64,000 bases of DNA from Watersipora subatra (Eukaryota > Bryozoa > Gymnolaemata > Cheilostomatida > Watersiporidae). Under the pieces are notes generated by a model. The model was not told where the DNA came from. It worked only from the letters and a program-made list of their open reading frames with translations, and searched no databases. Positions 4,401 through 27,719 of this stretch are shown here, one piece after another. Position 1 is the first letter of the stretch. Each line of letters starts with the position of its first letter. The position numbers and the translations under genes are program-made. The DNA lies in NCBI RefSeq assembly GCF_963576615.1, contig NC_088716.1, positions 3,782,001 through 3,846,000 of the forward strand, written 5' to 3'.

Positions 4401-5815
4401 AACTAGTATTACGATAAGTTTTATATCCAGCTTTGTATTGGCCTTTCAATTCACGTGAGAACATACGTGACAAGACAATAACCAAATTTTGTGGCTACGT
4501 CATCGAAATAAAGAGATTCCAATCTACGGCGGCTTTTCGTTTTTTAGCTTTTAAGAGCCTGTAATCACATTTCTACATATTTGGCACTTACAACACAGCA
4601 GAGTAAGACATGGTGAATCTTTTGATACCAAATAACTGTAATGTGAATTTTGTTCCAAGTCAACCTTTAAGAAATTGCTGTGCTTCAGGAAACTCCAAAC
4701 TTTGTTGAAAGTTACAATGTGTGTAGAGAGACATATTTTCTGGAAGTTTATGTTAGCTAGTTGAGAGTAGTCTGCTGTAGATGGCTCCCTCATCTTATGA
4801 TCTTCTAAATTTCACAAGTTTTCTTAGCAAGGAAGTGAGGTAGCTGTTCATTGTCTGCCCTTAGCATGAGAGGACGAGTCTGCCCTTAGCATGAGAGCAC
4901 TTTCCAGAGGGCTACCACTACATCATGGCTGATTTTAGATTTGCTTTACGCGTTGGAAAGTCAGAAGCAAAATATTGACTAAAGCAAAAATGAGTTTTTT
5001 GTTTGAGACAAGCATTGTCGGTGTCATGACATCTCTCGGTCTCATGGCGAGATTTCTAATATTGTGATGAGACAACTCCAATCAGAACAGACATGCACAC
5101 AAATATCGTGTGAATGCTACTACATGTGTTGTTCTACCCAAGTTGCAATAATAATAATAAATTCACACAGCACCATGATCCAGCAATAGTTACACAGCGC
5201 AGATGAACTGAGCAAAAATGATCGACCTTTGATCATACAAAAACCTCCAACATGGTTCTTTCAAGAGCTTTGGTACGAGAAGTCTTGGATAAGTTTTGCA
5301 TTATCATTAATACGGAGTTATCTACTGCTTTATGTGGAAAGGTAACTCCAAAATGATAGCTTTCTATAATATATTTAGGGCTATTTATTAACTTTAGGTT
5401 TGAGTGGAAGGATGGACTAATTAAGACGACTGCAGGTGACTGTGTCACGCTGCGTGCGACAGATAGCTATCTAGTGGCTGGCCATTGTCATGGCAACAGC
5501 ACCCAGCACTTCGTGTATGACAAGAAAAGTCGATATGTGAGTATTTACTCAATTGATAAAACGATTGTGATAAACTTTACTTTTTAAAACTGATCTTTTG
5601 ATGATCACTTTATTACATCTCATGGTTTGTGTGCACTGATGTGCTTGTTTCATAAACATCACACACATGTATTTTATTACCTACAGGTTATAGCCAAGCA
5701 CAATGGCCAGTGTGTCACACATTTTAATGGTGACAATGACCGGCAGGTGCTTCGACCATTGCCGTGTGAGGACAACTCTCCGTTCAATAGATTTATCTTA
5801 CATGATGAATATTGA
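1134..5815 (+). CDS. Polypeptide N-acetylgalactosaminyltransferase-like protein (GT27), 3' part
   Basis: Four exons joined in phase: 1134-1400, 3610-3671, 5398-5536 and 5687-5815 (stop TGA 5813-5815). About 198 residues are visible and the 5' part lies outside the window. Exon 1 matches the end of a GT27 catalytic domain: a VGGYD start (usual form LGSYD), then ALSLAVWLCGG, equal to the family's LELSFRVWMCGG. Exons 2-4 resemble a ricin-type lectin tail, with repeating hydrophobic residues, paired cysteines and a QHF in place of QxW. In the family these are Golgi type II membrane enzymes that add GalNAc to Ser/Thr. The copy is divergent: the GGEN signature reads GADG, the C-S-x-V-G-H metal site reads CECAFSQ without His, and the lectin CLD motifs read CVT. 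It may be an inactive relative. A lectin alpha-repeat exon may be missing between 1400 and 3610. Confidence 0.65.
1421..1490. repeat. 26-bp tandem repeat
   Basis: CAGATACAATTATAGC followed by CTGAGGTCAG is repeated about 2.5 times directly after the donor site of the preceding exon. Confidence 0.8.
1568..1800. mobile_element. hAT-like transposon end remnant with hairpin
   Basis: The stretch from 1572 (GAGATGCCCCGATTC, then repeated CCGATTCAGATACCGATCCG) has the look of hAT-type element ends. It is followed by a 14-bp perfect stem, GAATGACACCAATC (1758-1771) with GATTGGTGTCATTC (1782-1795). I found no matching right end and no credible transposase. The next kilobase (1800-2730) holds nothing I recognise. 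Confidence 0.3.
2745..3585. repeat. Degenerate minisatellite, about 25-bp unit, GTTGCTAGGGAAG core
   Basis: About 30 diverged units of roughly 25 bp share the core TGTTGCTAGGGAAGTTATGT. The best-preserved units lie at 3360-3460. The array ends about 25 bp before a small predicted exon. The core half, GTTGCTAGG, resembles an RFX/X-box half-site. Confidence 0.85.
3610..3671 (+). CDS. Exon: small lectin-domain exon at the edge of a minisatellite
   Basis: 62 nt read VSEDSVLGLSWCPSTLTDAY plus two bases that complete an Arg codon with the next exon. Phase 0 at its start matches exon 1, and phase 2 at its end matches exon 3. The donor GTAGGT is good; the acceptor (GTGTGAAG) has a poor pyrimidine tract. 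The joined sequence SVLGLSWC...FEWKDGLI has the spacing of a ricin-type lectin repeat (hydrophobic-x-x-C, then aromatic, then G-x-I). Called from phase and resemblance only. Confidence 0.5.
4150..4666 (+). mobile_element. TTAA-flanked terminal-inverted-repeat element (MITE), full copy
   Basis: A 517-bp element with inverted arms of about 125 bp (4150-4275 and 4540-4666). Ends are AGGTTGACTTG and CAAGTCAACCT, and each side is flanked by TTAA (4146-4149, 4667-4670), the target used by piggyBac-type transposases. It has no coding capacity. Related pieces lie at 5213-5262, 7534-7663, 49900-50262 and 60847-60975. The flanks 3672-4145 and 4671-5397 are intron with nothing else recognised. Confidence 0.8.
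5213..5262 (+). repeat. Internal fragment of the TTAA element family
   Basis: AAAATGATCGACCTTTGATC and the following AAACCTCCAACATGGTTC match positions 4280-4325 of the full copy. No terminal repeat is present here. Confidence 0.6.
5398..5815 (+). CDS. Exons 3-4: lectin beta and gamma repeats and stop
   Basis: Exon 5398-5536 reads FEWKDGLIKTTAGDC and ends at DKKSRY before GTGAGT; exon 5687-5815 reads VIAKHNGQCVTHF to FILHDEY-stop after CTACAG. Cysteine spacing (GDC...GHCHGN; GQC...LPC) follows ricin-type lectin repeats of GalNAc-transferases. The sugar-binding Asp of the CLD triplet is absent in both repeats. A possible poly(A) signal AATAAA lies at 6298-6303. Confidence 0.65.
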
Positions 5816-8886: not shown

Positions 8887-11800
8887 GTAAATACATAATA
8901 TAAAAATACTTGCTATTATTTTTGTAATACATTATTGAATATGTGAAAAAAGTTAATAATAAAAAAAGAGCCAAAGAATATTCTCTCTCAAAGTTCAGAG
9001 AATTTTCTGCTTGTAAGTCCAAGATAGTGGGTGCCTTATAATTCCTTCAACGGGCGCATTTTAGTTTACATTTATTCCCTTCTTCGTTTGCCATAGGAAA
9101 TTGAATTCTTTAGTTAGATAATTAAGCCCTAATTGACTCGTTAGTCTAGTTTTAGCCTTTGCTCCCGTCCTTTCTCCTGCCCTTCTCAGTACCACTGACA
9201 TTTAACAAGGAATTGTCCTTTCGCTTTTATGGTGGAAAGTATTTTTTTGTAAATTTTACGCAAATTTACTACACTTACATTGAACATAACTTCTTTTTAC
9301 ATTTTTTGAAGTTTAGAACCAGTGCTGAAAAACATTGACTAGAAAACTTTTATATAAGTCTAAATTACCAAAGAAATTTAAAATCTATTAATAATTGAAA
9401 TATTAATTGCCATTCAAAAAATCAGGATTTTACCAGTTATTTACCATATTATACATTTTTTGAAAAACTCTCAATACCAGGTATATAAAAATCACCAACA
9501 TAGTAAAGAATAGAGAAGTGGAATTGTTGTGGTTAAGTAACCCTGGCTACTTTTTGAAGTGGGTTTTTGAAGAGTTTAAGTTTTTGTCTCAGTAATATGT
9601 TATCAATTGGAGGCGTGGCATTTTCGCGCCACGGCTAACTAGCTATGACGTCTAAACTATCATGTCTAAACTTTCATAATCGTAGTCAGGTCTAACCGTC
9701 TTTTGGATATTGATATCGTAATTACGATCAGTGTGGAGGAAAAGATTGCTCCGACTTAAAAAACTTGAAACGTTGAGCTTGTTTAAGCAACATTGACATA
9801 GCTTTAACCAGACATTATCTATCGGAGTTACAAATTTACAACATATGTATTTCATTTCGACAGCCTACATGCGTTTAGGCCTTAGGCTTTTTGAAACTAT
9901 GCGACCGAAAACAACTATGGTGAGAGCAACGGGAAAGCATCGCAGTTAGGTTCTACAATAAAATTTTGGGCGGATGTCGGATGTTATACAGAACATCTCT
10001 ATTTCATTAGTTAGAGAATTTCTTAAACGAAAGGTAGTATTTGAAATTCAAGTTTCAATAGTAAATATACGTTACATGTAATGTTTATATTTTCTGTATT
10101 TTAAGGATCACAGAAGGATGACTTTAAGTTGTTGTTATAATATTAAAAAAAAAACTTATTAGGTAGTTTTAAATGCAGCAAAAAATGCCAAAAAATCTTT
10201 TTATTATATCAATATAGACAATCACAAAAGCTTTTAATAGAAATTAACACAGACATGAAGTTCTAGAATGATGGCTACGTGAGATCATGGAGTTGTTTGA
10301 CAGTCTTCTCTGTACTCTTGAAACACTTTTTAAATATATTATTTAAATTGAATGCTGCCGGAGTGCACCAACTGATAACGTTTCACAATTTTTTTGTTTT
10401 AAAAGCATTGTAAAATGATTTACTAAAACATAGAACTAATGATTGTATAAGCATAATTGTTGAGCATAAAAGACTCAGAAGATGCGGTGTCAACTTCTGG
10501 TTACTTACCACAAGTGTTTTGAAATAATATATTCTCCGCTAAAAAATAAGGCCGGTTTTGTCAATGGTAAAATACTTTGCCTTTTTATATAAACAAAAAG
10601 CAAAATGAACACGAGCAGTATAATTGAACAATACCACCAAGTTGGTAAAACAAAACAAGTGAATATAACTAGCAGAAAAGGTTGTGCCGTGTAAAATTGC
10701 ATTTACAATGTAACCCTATAGCAACTCTCAACATTAAAGTTCAACATCACTGTAGGTCTTCTGATGTAACTGATGAGTGGGAAAAATGAAAAAATGACAG
10801 TCTTTTTATATATACCGTTTAAACTGTTTAGTTTTAGCTTTCTATCGACTCCATTCTAATTATGGTAGTCAGTAGATTTAAGGTGTTGGATTTATTGTGA
10901 CCATTTGCTAATGAAGTTTGGCACAGGAACAGTTGTGGTTTGATGCCCTTCATTACACCACCAAAGGTCCTTGTGAGTCTCGAACCACGGACCTGCTGAT
11001 CACAAGTCAGCACACTGTTATGGGAGGATGTGAAGAAATTATGTTATGCATAACTAATCCAAATTCACACACAACATCAGTATTAAAAGTGGTTTGTCAT
11101 ATTATTCTGTTTTGACTATATTTAGTTTGTGCACTTTTGCTTAGCTTGTGGGAACTAATTTGATTATTACCGGTTCAGGTACAAGTGAAGGTGTTAGGCT
11201 ATTGTAAGCAACACTGATATTTACCACTGAAAGATTTTTTTCTACAAGTCAAACAATGAAATATACAACTAAAAAAACTCTGATAAAACAATAATATTAA
11301 TGACAAACGATTAGAATGGCTAATGAAAGTTACATCCTTACTTGAATGGTCGTCCATGCTTGTTTGATCAGTCCCGTATGGCTGTGGGTCTTGATGGTCA
11401 AATGAGATTTGTGACAGTCCATAGTGAAGAGTGAAGAGAAGACAATGAAGAGTTTTGGCAGTTGAAATAGTGGCGTAGAAGAGGCTCAGCTGACGAAAAA
11501 GAATGAGGCTCCATAGGCGGGTAGAGAGGTTTCTCAGCAGGAAGAAGTGAGAGGCCCTCAGGAAAAGAGAAAGAGAGCTAGATAGATAAATGCTGACTGC
11601 TGAGCCATTGGAGCTGTTCTCTTTCTTAGATGACTGGCATGTGGGGTGGCTAGCCTGTGGGTGTAGGTTGAGTGTTAAGGTTCAATGCTTTATGTCAGGT
11701 GTGTGAAGGTATCTTGTTTACATAGGTCTTCAGCTGGTGCACATGGTGTTGACATGTAGGGTGGAGCTCGTGACTTACTCTTGGTATTTAGGTCATGTTT

Positions 11801-12291
11801 GACAGGAGTGGCAGATTTGTATATGTGTACTCATTTGATTCATGTCTAATGTTTCTCTGGTGGTTTTCTGTTGATGGTCGTTGGTAGATTTAATTGCTTC
11901 GACATCCCTTTGGCATGTTCTCCATCTGGTGTTGACACATTTTCTATGATTGATTTCTCTAATTTTGAAGTTTCTAATTTGCTTTTAATGTTTTCTAATT
12001 ATTGGATCTTTTGATGTTTTTAGGCGTCTTGCTGCTTGTACGTATAATATGCTTATCCTGTGGTCTGGCTGCGTTCCCTGTTGGTATCTTGTTTTTTGCA
12101 ATATTTCCATACAACAGCACTAACCACTGAGCCATTACATATATCAAATAAAATGCGCATTATAGCTTATAATCCAGTTTTTTCATACAATGGAAACTTC
12201 ACACACTGCTAACTGAATGAGCAAGTTGATACCAAAAGTAAGAATGCTATTAAAGGCTCATCTGCTAGTATGCCATTATATGTACTTGCAG
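8887..12291. other. Spacer / first intron region upstream of MINDY4
   Basis: The first coding exon of MINDY4 should lie here or between 5816 and 8887, but I could not find it. Two tRNA-like pieces are visible on the minus strand: a B-box GGTTCGAGACTC at about 10974-10985 and an A-box TGGCTCAGTGGTTAGTGCTG at about 12115-12136; both are probably SINE fragments. A purine-rich patch lies at 11425-11590. Otherwise I see nothing. Confidence 0.5.
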
Positions 12292-13178
12292 GGTTTTTCT
12301 ATTACTTACCAAGCGCTGGAAACAGAGTCACCTAGGACAGAGTCAAGTATTACTAACAGAACTGAACTTGCCAGACTGCTCAGCATTGAAAAGCTCTTGA
12401 AGAAAAATAAAGTAAGTGTTGGGGCTTGTGGCCTCACTAGCTGATATTTTTTAGAAAACAACTTTGCTTATTTGAAAGTTGAATGAATTTTTCTTGTGAT
12501 TGTGTTTAATTTACTGTGCTCAAATAGTTTACTTTTTTCATTTGTTGATTTTTAATTCTCAACTTGAAAATACAAAAAATATCAGTACAATTATCAGGGC
12601 AAGTTGTTCTGATGTGGTATTGTCTAGTTTTAGGAAAAAGCTTTGACTGAAACTATCTTAAATACATATGAGTAAAATACAACATGAGGTTAAGTAAGCT
12701 CACCTTAAACTGTGTACCTGAAGCTTGTCTTTGTCGACTTTGCTGGCCAATTAGTCTAACAGATAACACCATGTTTCTAGAGCTATGGTGAATATTCAGC
12801 AATTTTTAGCAAAAGAAATTTAGGGTAATTTTTAAATCTCATCCGCTGAAACCCAAAATACAAGGCATTTATCTCTTTTGTCTGGTAGGGAATATTGACA
12901 ATATTTTCTATGCAGGAGAGTTATGGCTATTTCATTAGAACATCTAAAATAGTGTACTGTTATAGCTACTAACTCTTGTAGCACTGCTGCTATCTCTTCT
13001 CTTGATGGTTTCTCAGTCATGTTCATCCAAGTCTCACTTTACTTAAAGGAACAAACGAGTCCATTAAAAACCATTCTAGAAGTCATAGCACAATGGTTTC
13101 TACAGAAGGTGTCAGCTGATCTACTCTCTTTGAATACCAGTAATAAACATGCCAAAGTAAAAGATCAGCAAACTTCAG
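12292..13178 (+). CDS. MINDY4: MINDY4 exons 1-2 (visible): N-terminal family module
   Basis: Exon 12292-12411 reads GFSITYQALETESPRTESS and ends LLSIEKLLKKNK before GTAAGT; exon 13049-13178 begins EQTSPLKTILEVIAQWFLQK. These match the conserved MINDY4 N-terminal block (S-I-x-N-R-x-E-L ... K-K-N-K ... P-L-K-T-x-L-E), a LisH-like helical region. This block is what identifies the protein as MINDY4 rather than another MINDY member. The intron 12412-13048 holds nothing recognised. Confidence 0.85.
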
Positions 13179-16100
13179 GTTAGTCAACTCAAGTCGTCTA
13201 TATTCTACAACGTCTCACAATCCTTAATGACCTTGACACCTGGTCTTGTATATAAGCAGGTCTCCTGATCCGAGATTGTATCAGCAGCTTTTTATTGGCC
13301 GTGAAAGCTTTTAAAATAACCCAATTTCTTTTGAGCTGAATTTCAGATTGAAACTCCAAGCTTGTAGAACTCAATGAAGAAAAATCAAATAGAGTAAATA
13401 TTTTTTTCCGCTCTTTCAAAAAATAACGTTTTAGAGAGAACTAAAAAACATAATATTTGCAATACACAGTCTGATAGTGTGATAATCCAATAGAGTATTT
13501 GTTATGAATAAAAAAGCTAATAGTTTTAGTGTGAAGCTCTTGATGTTGATGAAAAACTTTCTAGCTTTGTCTATTTTTGATCTTCATTACTGAGAATTTA
13601 AGCGTCATTAGAAACTAATGCTCTGTTAGTAGCCATTTTTAATTATTTATTTGCGAGAAGTGTCCTTGGTTGGCGACATCTCAAAAACTAATTAGCCAAT
13701 CGACTTGAAACTTTGAAATTAAACTAGAAACACAAAGTGACCGAAATTTAGTAACCCTAGTAGTGCAGGAAAAACAAAGCAAAACTACACAACCAAAGTG
13801 TTAAAGCATAAGATATCTCACCATATATACAAGTACAAGTGCATATCTTTAGTATCTCACCATCTACCAAAGCACTCCTAGAAATAGTCATTAAATGGAG
13901 TTGCCTTAGCACTGTCACCCTTTATAGTTGAGAAAATTTAGTAAAGCAGTTGACACAGGTCACATGTTTACACAAGTAAAAGGATTCATAAAACGCCAAA
14001 TACACAAATACCCCATGATTTGCTGCAGGAAAATTGTAACACCAATTTTTAGCTGCATCAGATTATAAGGAAGCCATAATTGGACAACGTTAAACAGATA
14101 ATTATGAAGTGTCACCTAAAGCCTTACAAATACACAAAAACATGAGTCTGTAAAAGTCTCATGATAGTAACTGTCTATGCCAAAAATATTTGAAAATTTT
14201 ACGCCCATATTGTGGGTTAATATACCCAAATATACATGTACAAAAATGTAAATAAAATTAGAAGTTGTTTTCTTTTGATGCTACGAGTAGACAACTGCTA
14301 ATATGCATAAAGTTTCAAAATAGATGTTGGTAACATTAATGGTTCATTTTACAGAAGGCATAGCTTTACTTGAGGAAGATGAGCTGGAGACAGAGCTACT
14401 GGTTGGGCAAGGGATGGAGCATGTCATGCAGCAGCCGATAGAAGTTGTGCCCCCTCTGCAGCCAAAGCCTCCCAACAAGATACGTCATCGTAGAAGCTTG
14501 CGTCGGGCCAGTCAGGTAGCTTAATACAGTAAACTTCCTATGACCTAAATTCAAGATAAAGTAAAATAATTTACCGTAAAACCTTTATTTCAGCGCCATG
14601 GTGCTCCATTCTTGAACCCTTCATCTATAGTGGCGCTTTATTAAAGGTGATGTTAAAATCAAAGATGGCGTTGTATTATTCAAACACCTTATCAAATTTT
14701 TCGGAAGATAAATTTAACTTAAAATTAAACTAAATTTAACCTTTTTACGGGCAAAGTTTGCACTCTTCTTCGGGACATTAACTCTTTTGGTCGCAACAAT
14801 CTTTCTAACTCACCTCCAACTTGTGATCTTTTAAATAAATATCCACGAGGAAACTGATACATGTCTCTACTAGTTTGATACTTGCAATTAACCATTGATG
14901 ATCTTATAGAATGAGTTGAAATTTGTTAGAGCTTTCAAGTTTTTTATTTCATTTTAAATTTGAAGGCATGTTTTCATTTTATAGCTATATTTAACAAGGT
15001 TGCATAAAAGCTTATCGCACTAATTGATATGTTAGCTACAGTTTGTAGCCAAACCTAGTTTTTTATGTGCCATAGAAAAGGAGTTATGAGTGTCAATCTA
15101 TTGTTAGCTGAGTGTATATTACTGCAATGATGCTATCAAACACTACACTATAAACTTGCAAGGTTATAAGTTATATAATAATGACAATTTACCAACTGCT
15201 TCAAATATATATTCAAAATATATATTTAAATATATTTTTAAATATATATTTTAAATATATATAAGTGACATAAACAGATCGTATTTAAAATTCATTCAGA
15301 AACAAAAATTAACATTTTTAAAAGCAAAAATATTTGCATCGCGTGCTCAGCCAGTTACAATCTGGTTGTTGCCATTGTTTGAAACCATTTCATTGTCTTC
15401 TGGCTGTTCAATACCTTCCACGGCGTCTCCTGACCTCAAATCTTCTGCACATTTGAGCTAGTCGATACTAGCGCACAAACAATTTTATTAACGGAAAAAA
15501 ACTTTTACATGATGCAATTTACTCCTCTATCTCAATTAAAGAGAAACTACGTGTAACAATATAGCCTCAGAGTTTCAGACTCAAAATACATAGTAGCACA
15601 GATTCCATTGTGAATGCGCAAAACCTTTTCACATACATCGAAGTATCAAGATCGCGATAAACAAGGAACTACTATTAGCCTGATACAGTTACTAATTATT
15701 TCCATGGTGCTGCTTTCAAAGTTTTGCCAAAAATAACTGGAAAGATTTGGAGTTGGAAAACGGACTTCGATACAAACAAAAACAAGAAACGAATTAATTG
15801 TTATTGATGTAAACGAGTCTAGTAAGGTTTTGTGGACACTTTTATACTGATCACTTGATATTATGGCTTCGTAAAGATCAAGGATGTCAAATAGTGGCAG
15901 TCATTTAGAAGTGACATTCAATTAAAATTTAACACTCTATTTTTCAATCCTTCCCCCATTGTGGCGCTCAAACACAGGTTTTATGGTATGTAAGGTTTTT
16001 GCTTCATACTGCGTAAAAATTCCATATAACGTCAAGTGTAAAGTTGGGGTAAGTTCTCAAATTCAATTTTAATGGTAACATATCTCGCCACTATAGTGAG

Positions 16101-19100
16101 AAAAAACGACATACGTATAGCGTTATAGCTATTATACATATACGGTACACAACTTCATGGAATTTTAGTTCATAGTGATAGATCGTCAGATGTGTCGACA
16201 AAACAGAGAATGGGTAGCTGCGCGATTGTTTATAGATGCTTAAAGACGATTGATTGGTGCCGGTGTTATAGCAACAGTCTGCCAATCTGAATGTCTCGAG
16301 TTGGAGTATAGTTGAAAGTTATCTTGTATACTAACTTTGATCCATGAATACAGATACAACAGCGAACAGGTAGACATCACTCTTTTTATAGTACAAGTAA
16401 ATTTTTGTTCTGATTTGTAGTTGTATAAAATATTTTTTATTAGTTTTACTTTGCAGAATAGACTTTGCTGTCTCGAAAAATAAACAAATTGTTGTAAATG
16501 GACGTCAAACATGTGTGATCTCTGACAACTTATTGTAAAATTACCGCAACCATAGTCTGTAAAACCTGTGAAGTTGATCAGAAAGAGGAGAAAAGTTGTC
16601 GATGTATATTAATAATATTACAGTTACGGTACAGCCAACAAATTAAAAAGTTAAGTCTAGTTTTTTTGTATGGCTAAAGGGGTGAGTTTGGAAAGAAGTT
16701 GGAACAGATGAACAGATTAGACAATTTACATGTATTTTACATAATCCTGGAATGGATTATTTAAGTTGTGGGACCTACTAGTAGATATCAAGGGAGATAT
16801 CTAATGCATCTCCTGATTGTGTAATCGCTGGTTTTAACCTACATTTTGAGTGAATTGTCAGACAAGACACACTTTTAGGCGGACATTTGTGCAGCAACCA
16901 ATCAGAGAGATACATTATGGTTTGTGACATCAAGATATTTAATGCATGTTAAATAACAATAATACCTACAGCCAATTCTTTCACAGTGTTCTCTGAGCTT
17001 CTGGAAGAACACGATAGAGAAAGCAGTTTATGTTTAATTTCAACAGTAAATTCAATGAGCCGTTAATTATCTTAATTATTAATTAATAATAATTATTAAT
17101 TAGCCGATTTTCATATCTATGGCAGCGAATTGTGGCCAATAACTTTTAAAATACTTTGAACCCCTTCTGATTTCAACATGTTTTTTAGTGAACATAAAAT
17201 ATCACAGAAGTTCTTCATAAAAGGACTTAATTTTGAGTTCCTTTTGTCATTTGTCAAAAAATTTTCATTTTCCAACTGGCTGAGAAGGTGTAACTGTGAT
17301 ATATTTCGTCTCATTCAAACATGGCAATTTAACAAGTAAGAAATACACTTGTTTGTTTCAAACTAAAACTTTTGTTCACATTTACTTACATGAAGGCGCA
17401 AGAAACAAGCCAAGCAAGGGTGCAGCATCAAATCTCTACAGACTCCTATGATGAAGTAAGTGGTGATAACGCGGAGAGGTCTAGGTGCCACAGTCCAGAT
17501 GAGCAAACAAGTCTAGACAAAGTTGAAAATGAGACAGCGGAAGCATCTCCAGTGTCTTCCTCCTTCGCTGACTCTGAGCAAGTTTCCAGTGAGTATCTCA
17601 TACAGGAGCCTATTTATGCTGAACAAACGCCTTCTCCAAGTCCGCCACACCAAGAACCTACTGTTGAGTCAGCAACACTGAACCGTGAAGTCAGTCTGGA
17701 CACAGACGACAACCAACTAGAGAGATCTACAGAACCAGCATCTACTCCAAGACCTCCTTTAAAAGTTCCAGATTATATTAGCTCTGCAATAAAAAACACG
17801 GCCTTGGAAAAGTCGATGGAGCGACTGAGAGAAAGACGCATTGCACACTTGGCTAGTACACAGGTTCAAGAAGAGACAAATCCAGTTTCAGAGGGTGGAT
17901 CAGAAATGGAGGCTCAATCAAAATCTGTTGATGCAGAAGAGGAAAGTTACAGCCCAAGAATAATCTAGTGAGTCCATTCATTCATTTTATTATAAGGCTC
18001 TTGTCCTAAGTGGTAGTTGCTTCTAGTCTGGTACATTGACATACAAACTTAAGGCATTCCAGAACAGAGCTTGCAAATCAATTTACTTGTATTTCAATAC
18101 AAGATTTTTTACATAAACTAACTAAAAACAAATTAATTTGTTTCCACTTTTTGAAAAAATTACCTAAAACAGGATATTACGATGAAAAATGTATTTTTAA
18201 TTGTTCCAATTCACTTCCTACGCTTACAAAGTAACAAGTACCTCTACGGTAGTTATGATCTGCAAACATATAACATTATCATGTACAATACTGTTTGGAA
18301 TTCTTACCTTGGACACAGATGTAGCGGCTAACAGCAGTGTGAGAGAGACTTACTTTATGACAATACGTTCTGTAATTTATACTTTTGTGACGCTACGTAA
18401 CGTAACATAAACTTTGAATTTAACCTAAATAAACTTAGCTTACTCAGAGTTTAAGTCTTACAATAAACCTAATTTTAATTTTGTTTTTACAATTAATTAT
18501 TTTCAGGCTTGGCGCTTTTTGTCTCGCTTTAGCCCGCCTTCTTAGCAAGTTTTCCAACTGGTCTGACGACAAAAATTGAGCGATGATGTTCTTAAAAGTG
18601 TCTTCTCGCATACTTAGCCACTTAACAGTTGCATCAAGAACCGTCTCATAATGTATCTCAAAACAGTTTTGTATCTCAAGGCAAAATAATGCTAGAAATT
18701 TTGTTCATATCTCAATTTTCTTATAGGTTGGGCACTCGTATGTCGAGGTTATAACTGTACATACTTGTTATTCATGTTCTTTTCAACTCAATAAACTAAA
18801 ACTAATGCTTAGACATCCTGCAGAGTAGACTGACTGGTTGTTTTAGCAATGATCCAGAACCACTGGCTAGGTCACCTGTTGAGAAAACAGTAGATGCCTC
18901 CAAAGAGCATTTGATGGATGAAGTAGTTGACCAATCAGAACAGCCAATCCCCAAAGCAGTTGCCCGAGTAGATGAGACAGCAAGCAAACAGAAAGTGGAG
19001 TACATGGCTGTGAAGGAGGTGATATCTAGTGCCAAGGCCATAGACATACACACTGCCTCAGTGAGTCTCTGCTCTGTCGGTTAATGTAAATATTTATTGC

Positions 19101-22100
19101 TTGTGGGTTGTCAAAAGATTCAGATGCGAGTATGTCACCCTTGGAGTTGTCTTCCTTATGCTACAAACACTGTCTTATCATTTATTTGTTTGATTGCTTT
19201 CAACTTAACACAAGTTAAGTTTTCTTACTAACTCAGACTGCTGCTGATTGCTCTTATACTGACAACCAACTGTGAATTAAAATTTTATTTTTGTTTTAAT
19301 CTGTTATTTTTCAGTCAATAGGATCCATGTTGTTAGTCCAATAATGAATATTCAAATGCTATTCTAGACAATCAATCATTGTCTTACAGAGCAAAAGTTA
19401 TCAAAATATGATATGCAATCAAAAGTTTATTGATGATATTAGACTTTTGAACGGGAGCGCAACTCCTTAATATTGGAGCTAGTTCAATAACTTCAAATTC
19501 CCTATAACCTACTGTATATTTGTTAGTTTAGGTGAAGTATGCTCCTTGTGTACACATGACTTTAGCCTTATCTCCTACAAAAACTAATTGGTAAGTGGGG
19601 TGCCCTCCCTAACATCTTGTTATTTTGCAGGAACTCAAAAGGCTTGTGCTAGGCTCAGCGTCTCAATCATTTCATGAGAATTGGCTCGGTCAGGGTTTAG
19701 GCTTTTGTGATATGCCTGCAGTCTTATATGGCATGGTGCAACACCGGCCTGGAACATCTGGACTGATGTCTGTTGTTCAGGGCTACTTCCTAATGGAGCT
19801 GTTATTTATTAACTCTTTAACAAGAGACCTTCCGATAAAGAGGTGAGCCGGGCTATCTTGTAGCATATAGATGAGGAGAGGAGAAAGGAAAGTTCAGAAA
19901 CAGTAGATTAACACATTCAAGCCTAACATTGTATACACAAACCTCTCTATTTGTAGACCGTATTAACAACCTTCAATCGACTGTGAAAATACCTAGGATA
20001 ACACTTTTTAACTTTTTATTATATTGAACCTTAAATATTGTAGAATTCAATAAAAACAATAGTAAAAAATAGTGAATAGTTTTTTCACAGTTTTTTGAAG
20101 ATCTGATGGTTTAAGGATAACTGAAAGAACAATCATTAATGTAGATAATTGTATGCGTTGATAGAGTGTGTATATTTTTTATAAATGGAAAAAGAAATAT
20201 TTTTGGAGTAGATCTCTTGTTGCTGATGAGAAGCTGTCTATTTATGAGCCTTCGATACCCAGAATTACCAAGAATATCAATTATTGTGTCATTAGAAAAA
20301 AATGTTCTGTCATCAGTCATTTTGCATTTTTTGTCACCTAGAAATAACATCGGCATTTCGGCGATATCTCAAAAAATAATTGTTGGATCAACTTAAAATA
20401 TTTGAATTATACTGAAAAGGAATACCCCAAAAAGGGACTAAAGTTTTGTCATCTTACCTAAACCGGAAGTAAAAAACCTAACCTACGAAGCTGAATTTAT
20501 TCGGGTGTCGAATCAGGTAGGAAAACATTTCTGCGAATTATTACTGACCCGACCTTCAAAGAGTTCATCTTAAGAAAAATCAGGATGTTTGGGTTGAATA
20601 GCCAAAGTAGTGAGTTGTTTATAGCAAACTCGAGATGACCAGAGCTGGTTAGATTGTCCGAAACAACAATAAACAAAGATCTGACATTTTTGCTACCATG
20701 TTTGTTACAGAAAAGTTCTAAAGACAATGATTTCATATTTTGTATAAAGCTAATCAAAATATCATGAGTTACTGGCTTTATAATCAAATCAGACTTCTGT
20801 CTGACCAAATAAGTGATAGAATATTACACATTCATAGTCTTCTTAAGATGAGTCAAACCGACTTTCAGTTGGTGTTGTGTCATTTCCTCTTTTCAATAAC
20901 GAAATATAATACCACCGGCACATCTTTGTAGCGTCCAATCAGGGAAGGGATAATGTCTATCAATAATTGTAAACTGTATATGATCGCCCAATAAGTTTTT
21001 AATATAGCTGATTTATCTAAAAGTTTCAATAGAGCTGCTTTGCTCAGTTGCACGGGATGGTCATTGTAGGAAATTGTCTCCTCACTCTAATGTAAGATCA
21101 GAACTTCTGGCAAATGCTATAAGTAAAGTTCTTTGGAAATGTGGAGAAGGGAAAAAAGTGGTTTACGCCTTACCTGGTGACTCTACAATATTTTCTGGTG
21201 GTGGAAGGTTTCGTCCTGATGGAATTACGGAAAATGTATGTGTAATTCTTTTTAATAATTCTTCTATCTTCTTTATATCATTCTGTTTTAATTTTTTATC
21301 TGCTGCACCTTTACTTAACTTCATCTTGTTATCACAATACCTGCCATCTGTTAATAACACAATACCTGCCATCTGTTAATATCACAATACCTGCCATCTG
21401 TTAATATCACAATACCTGCCATCTGTTAATATCACAATACCTGCCATCTGTTAATAACACAATACCTGCCATCTGTTAATATCACAATACCTGCCATCTG
21501 TTAATATCACAATACCTGCCATCTGTTAATATCACAATACCTGCCATCTGTTAATATCACAATACCTGCCATCTGTTAATATCACAATACCTGCCATCTG
21601 CTAATATCACAATACCTGCCATCTGTTAATATCACAATACCTGCCATCTGTTAATATCACAATACCTGCCATCTGTTAATATCACAATACCTGCCATCTG
21701 TTAATAACACAATACCTGCCATCTGTTAATATCACAATACCTGCCATCTGTTAATATCACAATACCTGCCATCTGTTAATATCACAATACCTACCATCTG
21801 TTAATATCACAATACCTGCCATCTGTTAATATCACAATACCTGCCATCTGTTAATAACACAATACCTGCCATCTGCTAATATCACAATACCTGCCATCTG
21901 TTAATATCACAATACCTGCCATCTGTTAATATCACAATACCTGCCATCTGTTAATAACACAATACCTGCTATCTGTTAATATCACAATACCTACCATCTG
22001 TTAATATCACAATACCTGCCATCTGTTATTCGCACAATACCTGCCATCTGTTAATATCACAATACCTGCCATCTGTTAATATCACAATACCTGCCATCTG

Positions 22101-25100
22101 TTAATATCACAATACCTGCCATCTGTTAATATCACAATACCTGCCATCTGTTAATATCACAATACCTGCCATCTGTTAATATCACAATACCTGCCATCTG
22201 TTAATATCACAATACCTGCCATCTGTTAATATCACAATACCTGCCATCTGTTAATATCACAATACCTGCCATCTGCTAATACCACAATACCTGCCATCTG
22301 TTAATATCACAATACCTGCCATTTGTTAATATCACAATACCTGCCATCTGTTAATATCACAATACCTGCCATCTGCTAATATCACAATACCTGTCATCTG
22401 TTAATATCACAATACCTGCCATCTGTTAATATCACAATACCTGCCATCTGCTAATATCACCATACCTGCCATCTGTTAATATCACAATGCCTGCCATCTG
22501 CTAATATCACAATACCTGTCATCTGCTAATATCACAATACCTGCCATCTGTTAATATCACAATACCTGCCATCTGTTAATATCACAATACCTGCCATCTG
22601 GTAATATCACAATACCTGCCAATACCTGTTGTACCTGCCAATACCTGCTATCTGCTGTTCTATCTGATATTTCTTGTTTAATTTAATCCTTAATCATTTT
22701 TATATTTTGATCTGTTTCTATCGCCTTGCAATTTCATTGGATTTGTCTCATCTCGGGGTAAGCCGACTCTATATGTTTACAGTTAGTATTAAATACTGTG
22801 ACCAGCTATGATGACGCAGTGACTTGTGCCCTCCAGTTCATTTCTTATGTAAGTTATTACAAGTATATATGTATTCCTTCCAATATGTTTCACTGAAATT
22901 AGATCTCTGAACAACCAGGACTACATAATGTGTAAGAATCACGGTTACATAATGTATAAAAGCCAGGGCTACATAATGTGTAAGAATCACGGTTACATAA
23001 TGTATAAAAACCAGGGCTACATAATGTGTGAGAATCAGTGCTATATAATATGTAGCTGTGAAACAGCATGGCAGACTAGGTGCTTTATAAGCTTCATGAA
23101 TTGCTGAAAGGATTATAGAAACTTGTTTTTGTGTAGATCATTAGTACTGTTGGTGTCCATCACAGGTTTATTTCCTTTTTGGAAGATTATGCATGATTTT
23201 TAACAAAAAATAAACTCAATTAGGTGTGGTATGGTGGCTACCCCATTGCATCTTCAATATTACTTCTGCTTATTTAGTTTGAGACTGATGATAGCAGTGG
23301 AGCCATCCTGCTCTTGTATTCAGCTGTGCTATCTAGAGGTATCGAATTGTAAGTGATTTTATATACATTTAATATTCTATTGTACGGAATTACTGAATTT
23401 ATTGTACAGAATTTTATTGTATGGTATTCTGGAATGTATATTTTATATTAATATATCACATGAGTAGATGATTGTCAGTATAGAGTAAAATACATCTTTT
23501 GTTAAAATATAATGCCACTTACATCTGCATTATTTAATATAAACAATATGTGAATTTTATCTATAAAGTTCACACCAGCCGCTTTGCAAATGGAGCTTTT
23601 TTGCTCAATCTCTGAATTACTTTATGGGAGTTATCGGCCTGATTTTAGAAGCCAGTGTCTATGATATTTTCACTATCATATGAAACTAGATTAAATGAAA
23701 CAGATTTTGGTACCAGTATACCGGAGTCAGCTGTTAAAACATTTTGATTACAAGCTGTTTTTATAGCAATTTAAACGCTACTAATGGAGATAATATGTGT
23801 TTGCACGAGAATAGTATAACCTGACACATTCATTACTAGTAGAACAGCACTAATGTAAGGCTCATGTAAATAGTGGGCTAACTTACCCTAATTATCAGGT
23901 AAACTAGAAAGGCTGTTTTTATAAACATAGAAGACCAGCAGATCCCTCCCTAGTCTGATCTTGCTAACCCTGAAGTGTTGATAACACCTTTCAGAGTGCT
24001 ATCAACAGAATTATTCCTCCCGTTTGAAGTGATGAAAAAAACTTGCACGAATGTGAAAACAAATATGACGTGCATATTTAATGACAATGTGTGATTTGTT
24101 GTGAAATTGATTTCATTGGCAACTCAAATTAAAAATCAGTCTAGAATCGTCCACCAATCAGGCACAATCTAATAAAATTTCTGCCTGTGCAAAACCGGTC
24201 TCGGGCTCATATGCCCTTTTTATTCGTGCCAATTCTCGGTCAAACAGTGCAGACAATGTAGAACAGGCTGGTGTAAACACAGGTTTACGTCAATCAAGTA
24301 TGTAATACGTCACAATTGTATACTGCCATCTCATAATGTTCTAACCAGCAATGTTGCCCATCTGGTTGCAGAGTGTTAGATGACATGGACTCCAATGAAA
24401 CCTCCCTTATTAATGAGCAAGGGTCTTGCTCCCCCGAGCTAGTGAACTTACTGCTCTGTGGTAAGGCAGCAAGCAATGTACTTAATGACTCACTAGAATT
24501 CACTCAAGGTCTTGGTAAAACTATTGTGCTGAAAGGAATTCCATCAAGGGCTGACATGGGGTTACTCTCCTTGCTTGAGCACATAAATACAGGACGTCGT
24601 AACAGTAGGCATCAGGTAAACCCTCTACATGCAGTGTTTGATTTGATGTCGGTTGGCAGTTGAGATTCGCCTGAAGTAGCCTGTTATTCTAACTTTCCAC
24701 TCATAAATTTAGGTTGGGACGTTTCTTAAAACTCCAAAGTTTCCGATATGGCTGTGTCATATTGAAGAACACTACTCACTTGTCTTCTGTATCAACAAGG
24801 AACTGATCAGTGACTGGAAAGCAGAACGAAGATTTGACCTGTTATACTATGACCCTTTGAGTTGCATGGAGGAGCCCATCAGGCTGACTATAGGTAAGCT
24901 AGTTTATGCTGACCTTAAAGTATGTTGCGTGTTGTAATTGCATATTCTATTCAAGACCAGATACGCTTGCATCTCAAAATAGTAACTCTAATTTCAAACC
25001 TCTGTTATCTTCAGTCTGCAGTTCTCATTTCAACTAATATGCTCGTAGCCCGTTGTGAGGGATCTTCATGTGTAATAAGTATGCGCACAATTATACGGTG

Positions 25101-27719
25101 CTGCAGCAAGATGGTTGAGTGGTGCGGTTGGTAGTGTGATTGGCTATGAATCTGAAAATCCGTGTTCTATTCCTGTGTAGAGCAAGCTTTTTCCCTAACA
25201 CTCTTAGCATTGTTTCGGACAGACGAATGGGTACAAACTTTATTATAATAAAGACTAGCCGGATGCCCTTTGGTTTTTCCTTTGTAATGAAACGATTGCT
25301 TAATGAATTTGATTAATATACTTGGTAAGGCAGTCAAGGTAAGCTTACCTTTACTAAAAGGATTACCGTGTTTGCAGACAGCTTAATAATCATTACATTA
25401 TGCGTACCTGTCAACTGTGTTAGTAAATGATCCCAAGAGCTTCAAGCGTGATTATTTTAACCGATGTAACAAATGTGCTAATAGTCATTGACAAGTTGGC
25501 TATAATAGTGTAATGGATTAGATCGTTGGCCTGCTGAATTGGAGGTTCTGAGATCAAATAATTTGCGGAGTAGAGTTTTCATCTTTCGATTTTAATCGCT
25601 CTAACTGAACAGCTAAAAATGGAAGTAAAGATGCTAAACAGGCCTGAAAAAGTGTAACATCCAATTATGGATGTCAAGTCATAATTGATCACATAATTAT
25701 GAATGTCAGATAACTATAGCTGATACATTTTTAGTAAGTCAATATTTACATCTTGTTGACCGTTTCCTAGAAAGTTTGTCGTGGGCGCTTTTAACAAGTT
25801 TACCAATTATTTTGCACTGCCCAGTTCATCACTAATAATGAATAACTACATGGAAGATGATCTTTTTTCTACCAGCATTGGCTTCAACTACAAGATTATG
25901 GATTTTTCTTTCAACAAACAAATGCATGTAGTAGGCATGAATAGTCAAATTGTTTTACGGCCCAGGTAGCACTGAAAGATGGCAAATGTTGCATACTGAA
26001 TAGTCTCAGGACCTTTTAAACTAGTTTTAATAAATGTCCTCATAAAAGCATTAGAAATGTCTGATTCCATTTAAAAGTAATATAGTCTGTACAAATATTT
26101 CATCTATTTTATGCAGATAGGTGTACAGAGCTAAAACCTCTTCCACAATTTTTGATTGAGAATAGAACTGAGCTATCTTTTCATATTGATTTTCTTTATT
26201 AACACTCTATTAACTTCACCTAGTCATGATTACTGTCTCTCAACTATGATGAACTGAGACACAAGAATCTGAAAGTGAAACAGTGTATACAAAGGTAACA
26301 CAGTTTAATCCAATACTGCTGATTTGAACAACACAGCTTTGTTTTTAGATACAACCAGTCGTTTCTTTGAACCACCAGAAGATGACAATGGAGTCCCTCC
26401 TCTAGAACTCTGCATCAGAACTAAGTAAATAAAGCCAATTTATCTCAAGTCATTAAATATTTTCAGTTGATTTCTATAAATAAAAAGCCCTACACTGAGT
26501 CGGTAAATCTTTTGACCCAAAAACTGATCTGATGATAAATGTGCGTCTCTCCCTGTTACGTTAACAAAAACTATTAATCACCAGCTTACGTTGAATATGT
26601 CATCTGGTTGTATACTGGTAATAAATTAGCTTTCCATGAGTGGACAGTTGCAAGAATATATGTATACTCTCATATATTTCAAGACCTTGGTTGGCGCTAT
26701 ACGCACGTTTATTACAGCTGCATGAATATGTGTGAAGTTGTGTTTGGTGGTAGAGACAGCTGCGTAGCGTCTTTAGAACTCTCTAATTATAAACATTTAT
26801 AAGAGACAAACTTTAACAAACGTTGTGACTAAACATAAGCCTAAGTTTCTATAAAGTGGACTGCTTACTTTTAGTCTCAAAAAAAGGAAATAGGGCATCA
26901 ATGAAGTTTTATGAAAAGTTTAATGAACTAATGCAACATCTATGAAAGGTTTTTGGTTATGTGATGACTATATCCTTAAAAGGGTGACAGTCCTCCAAAG
27001 CTTCTGATATATGAAGTTTTGGCTCTGAAAAGTAACTCATATGTAAGGTTTTGGGGGACCAAGAGCGAAGGCGATATATATGAAATTTTTTTACTAATAA
27101 TTAATTTAAGTATAATTAAAAATGCAATAAATAGAGTTTCCTGTAAAACATAAGTGAGCAACAGTGACTTACTGATTGATTTGCTGAGCTCCGCTTTGAA
27201 CCGTGTGACTGGTTATTATAAACTCATGTTACTTTGACTGGAATATAGGTGCTTTTGTAGCTTCAGACTGGTGCCTTGTGGCTAATCCTCATCCAGCTGA
27301 TTAGACTGATTAGAATTCAGCTTAGAAGTGTAATTGATAGCTCTATTGAATAGATTAAGTGATTAGCACAAAACTGAAGTTTAAAACTTGGGAAGAAATA
27401 TAGCCATTTAGCAAACTGAAGTCAATGGCTGGAGTAATCTTACAAACATTATGTTTAATAGGCGTCACAGAGTTGTCTTCTCCATGAAATAACAGCATGA
27501 ACACTTATTTAACAATTGTACTTAACATTATTTCTTTTTACATTTTTTAGTAATGAAGCTAATAGCTATAGTCAAAACTGTCCAATTTTTATGTTGATTC
27601 TATCTTTAATATCACCTTTTCTGTTCCTCACTAGATGGAAAGATGCACAGATTGACTGGAATGGTTCGGAGCCGATTGCCGCCAAGTCAGCTACTGATCT
27701 CTTTGATGATATCATGTGA
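12292..27719 (+). CDS. MINDY4: MINDY-type ubiquitin hydrolase 4 (FAM188B), nucleophile Cys replaced by Ser
   Basis: Thirteen exons, all phase-consistent: 12292-12411, 13049-13178, 14355-14515, 17396-17967, 18847-19060, 19631-19842, 21070-21235, 22783-22848, 23278-23348, 24372-24615, 24713-24893, 26349-26424 and 27635-27719 (stop TGA 27717-27719). They give 765 residues; human MINDY4 is of similar length. Only the first exon (start Met and a short helix) is missing. The order is an N-terminal family module, a long Ser/Pro/Glu-rich linker, then the MINDY catalytic domain. MINDY enzymes cut Lys48-linked ubiquitin chains using Gln, Cys and His. Here Gln (19739-19741) and His (24770-24772) are kept but the Cys position is Ser (TCT, 19757-19759), within PGTSG in place of GGPCG. 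Hydrolase activity is therefore doubtful, while ubiquitin binding may remain. A weak ATTAAA at 27748-27753 may serve as the poly(A) signal. The gene identification is firm; the loss of activity is inferred. Confidence 0.88.
14355..19060 (+). CDS. MINDY4: MINDY4 exons 3-5: acidic and Ser/Pro-rich disordered linker
   Basis: Exons 14355-14515 (acidic, then basic: NKIRHRRSLRRASQ), 17396-17967 (190 codons, Ser/Glu/Pro-rich, low complexity) and 18847-19060 (ends AKAIDIHTAS). The TAG at 17966-17968 is not a stop: the exon ends after TA at the donor GTGAGT, and TA plus C makes Tyr. The last residues correspond to the conserved lead-in to the catalytic domain. No folded domain is visible between. Confidence 0.8.
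14574..15986 (+). mobile_element. 1.4-kb TA-flanked terminal-inverted-repeat element, copy 1
   Basis: The ends are inverted: CCGTAAAACCT at the left and AGGTTTTATGG at the right, each bordered by TA (14572-14573, 15987-15988). Subterminal parts also match (AGCGCCA... and ...TGGCGCT). No open frame with a transposase is visible. A second, more diverged copy lies at 42524-43870. A TA target suggests the Tc1/mariner group, by inference only. It sits in MINDY4 intron 3. Confidence 0.7.
15200..15262. repeat. AT-rich self-complementary stretch
   Basis: Alternating TATATTTAAATATA-type words form a low-complexity palindromic run inside the 1.4-kb element. Confidence 0.7.
16040..16230 (+). repeat. 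Dispersed repeat, copy inverted relative to 62400-62580
   Basis: GGTAACATATCTCGCC, CAGATCGTCAGA-like and AAAACAGAGAATGGGTA words match the reverse complement of 62400-62580 in the same order, at roughly 75-80% identity by eye. Family unknown. The rest of the intron, 16230-17395, holds only an AT palindrome at 17070-17102. Confidence 0.65.
19631..19842 (+). CDS. MINDY4: MINDY4 exon 6: active-site exon with Cys-to-Ser
   Basis: Reads ELKRLVLGSASQSF, then GFCDMPAVLYGMVQ, HRPGTSGLMSVVQGYFL. The family reads YGIVQ-N-K-G-G-P-C-G at this point. The oxyanion-type Gln is at residue 37 of the exon and the nucleophile position (residue 43, codon TCT) is Ser. Gly-Gly-Pro before it is Pro-Gly-Thr, so several residues of the loop have changed, not one base. 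Confidence 0.9.
21070..24615 (+). CDS. MINDY4: MINDY4 exons 7-10: middle of catalytic domain
   Basis: Exons 21070-21235 (ALPGDSTIFSGGGRF), 22783-22848 (LVLNTVTSYDDAVTCALQF), 23278-23348 (FETDDSSGAILLLYSAVLSR) and 24372-24615 (SPELVNLLLCGKAASNVLND; then GIPSRADMGLLSLLEH). Each block corresponds to a conserved MINDY4 segment such as Q-E-L-V-N-L-L-L-x-G-K-A-x-S-N-V. Intron 7 carries the 25-bp minisatellite 21331-22660. Confidence 0.88.
21331..22660. repeat. 25-bp minisatellite, about 51 copies
   Basis: The unit reads ATCACAATACCTGCC then ATCTGTTAAT and is repeated about 51 times with only scattered single-base variants (AACAC, CTAAT, CTACC), so it is young or homogenised. The whole array lies in the MINDY4 intron between 21235 and 22783. 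Every unit contains CATCTG, an E-box. Unit length equals the period with no spacer diversity, so it is not a CRISPR array. Confidence 0.97.
22916..23040. repeat. 24-bp tandem repeat, about five units
   Basis: Alternating units GGTTACATAATGTATAAAA and GGCTACATAATGTGTAAGAA (24 bp each) form a small array in the MINDY4 intron before exon 9. Confidence 0.85.
23648..23975 (+). repeat. 330-bp dispersed repeat, copy A
   Basis: Matches 28540-28862 in the same orientation at high identity (for example CAGATTTTGGTACCAGTATA and GAACAGCACTAA). Copy A lies in a MINDY4 intron, copy B in an intron of the neighbouring minus-strand gene. No coding frame. Confidence 0.85.
24713..27719 (+). CDS. MINDY4: MINDY4 exons 11-13: catalytic His and C-terminus
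   Basis: Exon 24713-24893 reads VGTFLKTPKFPIWLC, then EEHYSLVF with the catalytic His, and ends RFDLLYYDPL...IRLTI. Exon 26349-26424 carries PPLELCIRTK, and exon 27635-27719 reads WKDAQIDWNGSEPIAAKSA to the stop. The family ends near WNGSDP; here a 16-residue acidic tail (AAKSATDLFDDIM at its end) extends further. Confidence 0.88.
25085..25275 (+). mobile_element. tRNA-derived SINE-like sequence
   Basis: AGATGGTTGAGTGGTGCGG resembles a pol III A-box region and GTGTTCTATTCCTG a degenerate B-box about 45 bp downstream. The tail ends in TTTATTATAATAAAG. It is not a functional tRNA: no acceptor stem is visible. Confidence 0.45.
25498..25620 (+). mobile_element. tRNA-derived SINE-like sequence
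   Basis: TGGCTATAATAGTGTAATGG (A-box-like) and GGAGGTTCTGAGATCAAA (B-box-like) are spaced as in a tRNA head. The remaining intron from 24894 to 26348 holds nothing else recognised. Confidence 0.45.

What the first reader, a model, noticed from the sequence alone, without database searches (positions are those of the whole stretch)
19739..19759. MINDY4 with Ser in place of the catalytic Cys
The exon keeps VQ six residues before the nucleophile and the partner His (24770-24772), but the nucleophile codon is TCT (Ser) and the loop reads PGTSG instead of GGPCG. In cysteine deubiquitinases a Cys-to-Ser change normally abolishes cleavage but leaves ubiquitin binding. All 13 exons are open and in phase, so the gene appears maintained. 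It may be a natural ubiquitin-chain binder or trap, or one paralogue of an active/inactive pair as in vertebrate MINDY4/MINDY4B.
Basis: partly seen in the sequence, partly recalled or inferred. Interest (0 to 1): 0.72.

Follow-up and report, generated by a model that had tools for sequence, protein, structure and literature searches.

The report
MINDY4-like gene lacking catalytic cysteine
This animal gene encodes an intact-looking protein of the MINDY-3/4 family of ubiquitin-cutting enzymes in which the cutting cysteine is a serine, so it is probably an inactive relative that binds or scaffolds rather than cuts.

Summary
A 14-exon model on the + strand (9974-27719) is open over 785 codons with 13 GT-AG introns. 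Its C-terminus matches PF13898 MINDY-3/4 end to end (E 4.3e-106). Codon 19757-19759 is TCT (Ser462) in a loop reading PGTSG; Gln456 and His692 are present. The one significant PDB relative, MINDY-3, sets its GGPC cysteine opposite Ser462, though that stretch is weak by itself. If the ancestor was GGPCG, at least four base changes are needed, so one read error does not explain it. No second loop exon was found in the window.
Most likely this is a pseudo-deubiquitinase: fold kept, cleavage lost, with a binding or scaffold role. That role is inferred.
The case may be less exceptional than proposed. An indirect read-out of the Pfam model gives weak columns for the catalytic Cys (0.14), His (0.17) and Gln (about 0.15), while 6 of 9 other positions tested cost more bits when changed than His or Cys. 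Against this, the paper that defined the family reports perfect active-site conservation.
The decisive genome search for an active paralogue did not complete (14 tries).

The parts
9974..10033 (+). exon 1, start ATG, residues 1-20 (SLVREFLKRK)
   Evidence: least secure exon, placed by recalled likeness to the N-terminus of vertebrate MINDY4 and by phase
12292..12411 (+). exon 2
13049..13178 (+). exon 3
14355..14515 (+). exon 4 (acidic ALLEEDELETELL)
17396..17967 (+). exon 5, linker rich in P, S, T, Q and acidic residues
   Evidence: acceptor weak, so the 5' end is less certain
18847..19060 (+). exon 6
19631..19842 (+). exon 7, start of PF13898 with the altered Cys loop
19739..19741 (+). Gln456 codon CAA, position of the oxyanion-hole Gln (Q131 of MINDY-1)
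   Evidence: role in MINDY-1 from PMC4942677
19748..19762 (+). loop PGTSG where MINDY-3 has GGPCA
19757..19759 (+). Ser462 codon TCT at the nucleophile position
21070..21235 (+). exon 8
   Evidence: acceptor chosen by phase
22783..22848 (+). exon 9
23278..23348 (+). exon 10
24372..24615 (+). exon 11
24713..24893 (+). exon 12, with the partner His
24770..24772 (+). His692 codon CAC
26349..26424 (+). exon 13
27635..27719 (+). exon 14 with stop TGA

Best explanation
A pseudo-deubiquitinase: a full-length, apparently maintained MINDY4-like protein whose MINDY-3/4 domain still folds but cannot hydrolyse ubiquitin chains, because the nucleophile is Ser and the flanking Cys loop has changed (the Pro before the nucleophile is Thr; one loop Gly is Pro). 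Shown: open frame, full-length domain match, Ser at the Cys position, Gln and His kept. Inferred: folding, loss of cleavage, and a remaining role as a K48-ubiquitin-chain binder and/or protein scaffold.
For: Open 785-codon model with GT-AG introns. Full-profile PF13898 match, 355.2 bits. Ser opposite the MINDY-3 Cys. Residues that the family model weighs heavily are kept: alanine at W685, Q469, G621 or G674 costs 9.1, 5.5, 5.1 and 5.1 bits. In MINDY-1, C137A, H319A and Q131A/E abolish cleavage (PMC4942677, section 7 part 1 and passages). The Pro before the Cys (P136) has a regulatory part: P136A/P138A is less active than P138A (PMC8550791 passages). MINDY1 C137A was crystallised with K48-diubiquitin, so loss of the nucleophile need not stop binding. 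Ubp8 C146S is inactive but binds ubiquitin like wild type (PMC6172466). Human FAM188B forms a complex with USP7, reduced by deleting one predicted motif (PMC5967306 passages), so a scaffold role is plausible.
Against: No expression, binding or selection data, and no relatives to compare. P136A alone says little: it does not cleave diubiquitin, but wild-type MINDY1 does not either. Activity cannot be settled from sequence: USP53 and USP54 were called inactive but cleave K63 chains (PMC12037411 passages). The altered loop might also disturb ubiquitin binding. [quoted passage not shown]
Confidence: 0.62

Rival explanations
1. It is the inactive half of an active/inactive pair: a second MINDY4 gene with a GGPCG loop elsewhere in the genome does the cleaving, and this copy regulates it or has another job, as assumed for vertebrate MINDY4 and MINDY4B. 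This is compatible with the main explanation, so the two confidences overlap.
For: Vertebrates have MINDY4 and MINDY4B (five family members named in PMC8424594, passages). FAM188B2 is in a table of zebrafish hair-cell-enriched transcripts (PMC4619078 passage).
Against: No second copy found in the 64-kb window. The long N-terminus looks like MINDY4 itself (recalled likeness, not tested). A later paper says that the zebrafish fam188b2 identifier is no longer in the current assembly (PMC10299642 passage). The genome could not be searched.
Confidence: 0.3
2. A decaying gene: cleavage lost its value in this lineage and the gene is drifting under relaxed selection.
For: Several loop positions have changed, not just the nucleophile.
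Against: No internal stop or frameshift in the 785-codon model; the whole domain still scores 355 bits; Q456 and H692 are kept.
Confidence: 0.15
3. Still an active hydrolase, with Ser462 or another residue as nucleophile.
For: Gln and His remain; PMC6172466 notes the possibility that serine mutants keep some hydrolase activity.
Against: Ubp8 C146S had no activity (PMC6172466); the loop around the Ser has changed too.
Confidence: 0.05
4. Assembly or sequencing error, or a rare allele, at the loop.
For: Only one sequence is available.
Against: If the ancestor was GGPCG, at least four base changes in 15 bases would be needed (codons), with the frame intact on both sides.
Confidence: 0.04

Closest known systems
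MINDY-3 (FAM188A; PDB 9rmd)
   Same: The one significant PDB relative, E 2.5e-16; Gln, His and the loop align
   Different: Has GGPC; C51 is its predicted catalytic residue and it cleaves K48 chains; an EF hand is inserted in its domain (PMC4942677). The window protein has about 420 residues before the domain
MINDY-4 (FAM188B)
   Same: Layout and N-terminal likeness by recall
   Different: Loop GGPCG by recall; here PGTSG. The assay legend of PMC4942677 lists FAM188A, not FAM188B
MINDY4B (FAM188B2)
   Same: MINDY4-type protein that I recall as annotated inactive
   Different: Vertebrate paralogue, shorter by recall; its loop could not be compared here. Two reviews list it simply as a K48 DUB (PMC8424594, PMC11489175; passages)

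Membership tests
PF13898 MINDY-3/4 conserved domain | Full-length profile match above the gathering score | tested here: met
   355.2 bits against 27; profile 1-344 of 344
Active MINDY deubiquitinase | Catalytic Cys | tested here: not met
   Ser462, TCT at 19757-19759
Active MINDY deubiquitinase | Partner His | tested here: met
   His692 opposite the MINDY-3 His
Active MINDY deubiquitinase | Oxyanion-hole Gln six residues before the Cys | tested here: met
   Gln456
Active MINDY deubiquitinase | Cleaves K48-linked chains | not testable with these tools
   needs an assay
MINDY4 orthologue | N-terminal region and closest kinship to MINDY4 rather than MINDY3 or MINDY4B | not testable with these tools
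   No MINDY4 or MINDY4B sequence turned up in the collections searched; likeness of the N-terminus is recalled only
MINDY4B-like pseudo-DUB of an active/inactive pair | A second, active copy in the same genome | tested here: inconclusive
   None found in the window; genome search did not complete

The most novel reading that the evidence does not exclude
The MINDY-3/4 family is mainly a non-catalytic ubiquitin-chain reader or scaffold: cleavage is kept in only part of it (such as MINDY-3) and has been lost repeatedly, this gene being one clear loss in an otherwise intact protein. The Pfam model, in which Cys, His and Gln appear as weak columns while several scaffold positions are strong, fits this; the report of perfect active-site conservation in the founding paper speaks against it.
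Probability: 0.2. Interest if true: 0.55.

Novelty: new member of a known kind. Interest (0 to 1): 0.32.

Why it matters
Pseudo-deubiquitinases show which parts of a DUB work without cutting. A natural Cys-to-Ser case with Gln and His kept would help to separate chain recognition from cleavage in the MINDY fold. If the family-model read-out is right, that separation may be common in MINDY-3/4 proteins.

Tried and rejected
Second copy or alternative exon 7 in the window: none found; the best other tblastn hit of exon 7 had E 1.3, and a loose six-frame pattern search printed four hits, none with GGPC. Relatives in viral contigs (1 stretch matched a pattern, 0 confirmed) and genome contigs (60 stretches matched, 0 confirmed). 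NCBIfam: no match for the 383-residue C-terminal part. MINDY4 with cilia: 5 papers listed, none on that subject by title. MINDY4 with 'catalytically inactive': 3 papers listed, one read by passages, nothing on MINDY4 catalysis. FAM188B2: 8 papers listed, two read by passages.

Considered and dropped: serine hydrolase (needs an assay; unlikely), viral or bacterial origin (intron-rich structure), ubiquitin trap as the main reading (the tight-binding effect reported is for Ala). A point mended on re-reading: P136A in MINDY1 does not by itself show loss of activity, because wild type does not cleave diubiquitin either. On re-reading I also found the statement of perfect active-site conservation, and lowered the probability of the novel case from 0.25 to 0.2.

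Full report
OBSERVATION. The stated codons were read directly. In a model of 14 exons (9974-27719, + strand, 785 residues, one terminal stop, GT-AG at all 13 introns), residue 462 is Ser (TCT, 19757-19759), residue 456 is Gln (CAA, 19739-19741) and residue 692 is His (CAC, 24770-24772). I chose the exon borders by homology, phase and GT/AG. Exon 1 and the 5' end of exon 5 are the least certain. Introns contain a stop in 7.0% of triplets, which would give about 2e-25 for 785 open codons; this is only a rough guide, since exons were picked. The other two frames of the joined CDS hold 48 and 75 stops.

IDENTITY. Residues 422-768 match PF13898 (MINDY-3/4 conserved domain) over the whole profile with 355.2 bits, E 4.3e-106; nothing else in Pfam was listed at E up to 1. 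NCBIfam had no match. In the PDB only the MINDY-3 chain 9rmd is a significant relative (2.5e-16); the two other listed chains had E of 0.66 and 0.74. The 9rmd alignment sets HYSLVF against HLTVFF, and HRPGTSGLMSVVQ against FEGGPCAVIAPVQ. The second stretch alone scores -1.8 bits, so it is weak by itself. By my count from the printed numbers, the aligned Cys and His are chain positions 53 and 289, two above the C51 and H287 that PMC4942677 gives for FAM188A. The assignment to MINDY4 rather than MINDY3 or MINDY4B rests on the long N-terminal region and on recall; no MINDY4 sequence was available.

THE LOOP. If GGPCG was ancestral, Gly to Pro needs two base changes, Pro to Thr one and Cys to Ser one, so a single error is not enough. 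No other exon-7-like sequence was found in the window: the best other tblastn hit had E 1.3, and the loose six-frame pattern search printed four hits, none with GGPC.

HOW CONSERVED ARE THESE COLUMNS IN THE FAMILY? I read out the Pfam model by scoring copies with one residue changed. At residue 462 all 20 residues were scored: Cys gains 3.2 bits over Ser, Arg 1.5. Normalised with background frequencies (recalled HMMER values) this gives Arg 0.15, Cys 0.14, the rest nearer background; 0.46 bit. At residue 692 all 20 were scored: His 0.17; 0.43 bit. At residue 456, 13 residues were scored (native; Ala on a longer piece; Cys; ten) and 7 were assumed: Gln about 0.15; 0.19 bit. As controls, nine other positions were changed to alanine: W685 cost 9.1 bits, Q469 5.5, G621 5.1, G674 5.1, Y693 4.2, P683 4.0, N626 2.8, D719 1.9, and F676 gained 0.5. 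H692A cost 3.2, and Cys scores 3.1 above Ala at 462, so 6 of 9 controls weigh more than these two. In the loop itself, T461P gained 0.7, P459G gained 1.8 and G460A lost 1.9. Cys raised the score only at 462 among positions 456-464. The copy with the family loop scored 51.7 bits against 45.9 for the native exon-7 fragment. So Ser462 lies at the Cys column, but the family model does not seem to be dominated by active-site residues. This is indirect: a blurred seed alignment could also flatten the columns, the controls were few and chosen by me, and I could not see the seed. [quoted passage not shown]

MECHANISM. In MINDY-1, C137A, H319A, Q131A and Q131E abolish cleavage (PMC4942677, section 7 part 1 of 2 and passages). 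The Pro before the Cys moves on substrate binding, and P136A/P138A is less active than P138A; P136A alone does not cleave diubiquitin, but neither does wild type (PMC8550791, passages). MINDY1 C137A was crystallised with K48-diubiquitin. The window protein lacks both the Cys and that Pro. Loss of cleavage is therefore likely and chain binding possible. In Ubp8, Cys-to-Ser had no activity, bound K48-diubiquitin at 4.6 uM and monoubiquitin like wild type; Cys-to-Ala bound K48-diubiquitin ten times and monoubiquitin about thirty times more tightly (PMC6172466, passages). I therefore favour 'binder or scaffold' over 'trap'. Human FAM188B forms a complex with USP7, and deleting one predicted motif reduced it (PMC5967306, passages). 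Against any firm claim: USP53 and USP54 were wrongly called inactive (PMC12037411, passages), and yeast YGL082W has the catalytic residues but no activity in the assay (PMC4942677).

WHAT IS KNOWN. Two reviews list MINDY4B as a fifth MINDY member and as a K48 DUB (PMC8424594, PMC11489175; passages); another paper names four members (PMC9380329, passages). I recall that protein databases call MINDY4B inactive; no passage I read says so. Searches for MINDY4B (12 papers), MINDY with deubiquitinase and pseudoenzyme (6), MINDY with 'catalytic cysteine' and FAM188B (2), MINDY-3/MINDY-4 with structure and K48 (2), FAM188B with deubiquitinase (14), inactive deubiquitinase with MINDY, evolution and 'active site cysteine' (20, of which 15 listed), FAM188B2 (8) and MINDY4 with 'catalytically inactive' (3) listed no study, by title, of a MINDY4 protein without its Cys in an invertebrate. 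Only open-licence papers are held. FAM188B2 appears in a table of zebrafish hair-cell-enriched transcripts, with ear and neuromast given beside it (PMC4619078, passage); [quoted passage not shown]). It is a lead only.

LIMITS. The host species is unknown to me; that it is an animal is my inference from the gene content. The genome search for a second copy was asked 14 times and never answered. No relatives, expression or selection data were available.

Noticed in passing
21330-22621: A 25-base minisatellite, about 52 copies at 96% matches, fills most of intron 8 of this gene (intron borders).
   Followed up: no
41947-42216 and 58493-58804, - strand: Fragments of receptor-type tyrosine phosphatases: a Y_phosphatase match (PF00102, 8.5e-12) and a PTPRU-type Fn3 match (PF23144, 9.7e-12), suggesting one or more such genes downstream on the other strand.
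   Followed up: partly
51010-51543, + strand: Reverse transcriptase fragment (PF00078, 4.5e-23), LINE-like; related-looking frames continue in other phases nearby.
   Followed up: no
5360-5584, + strand: Weak ricin-type lectin match, below the gathering score (18.1 against 29 bits), perhaps part of a neighbouring gene.
   Followed up: no
44844-45132: A 145-base unit in two nearly identical (99%) tandem copies.
   Followed up: no
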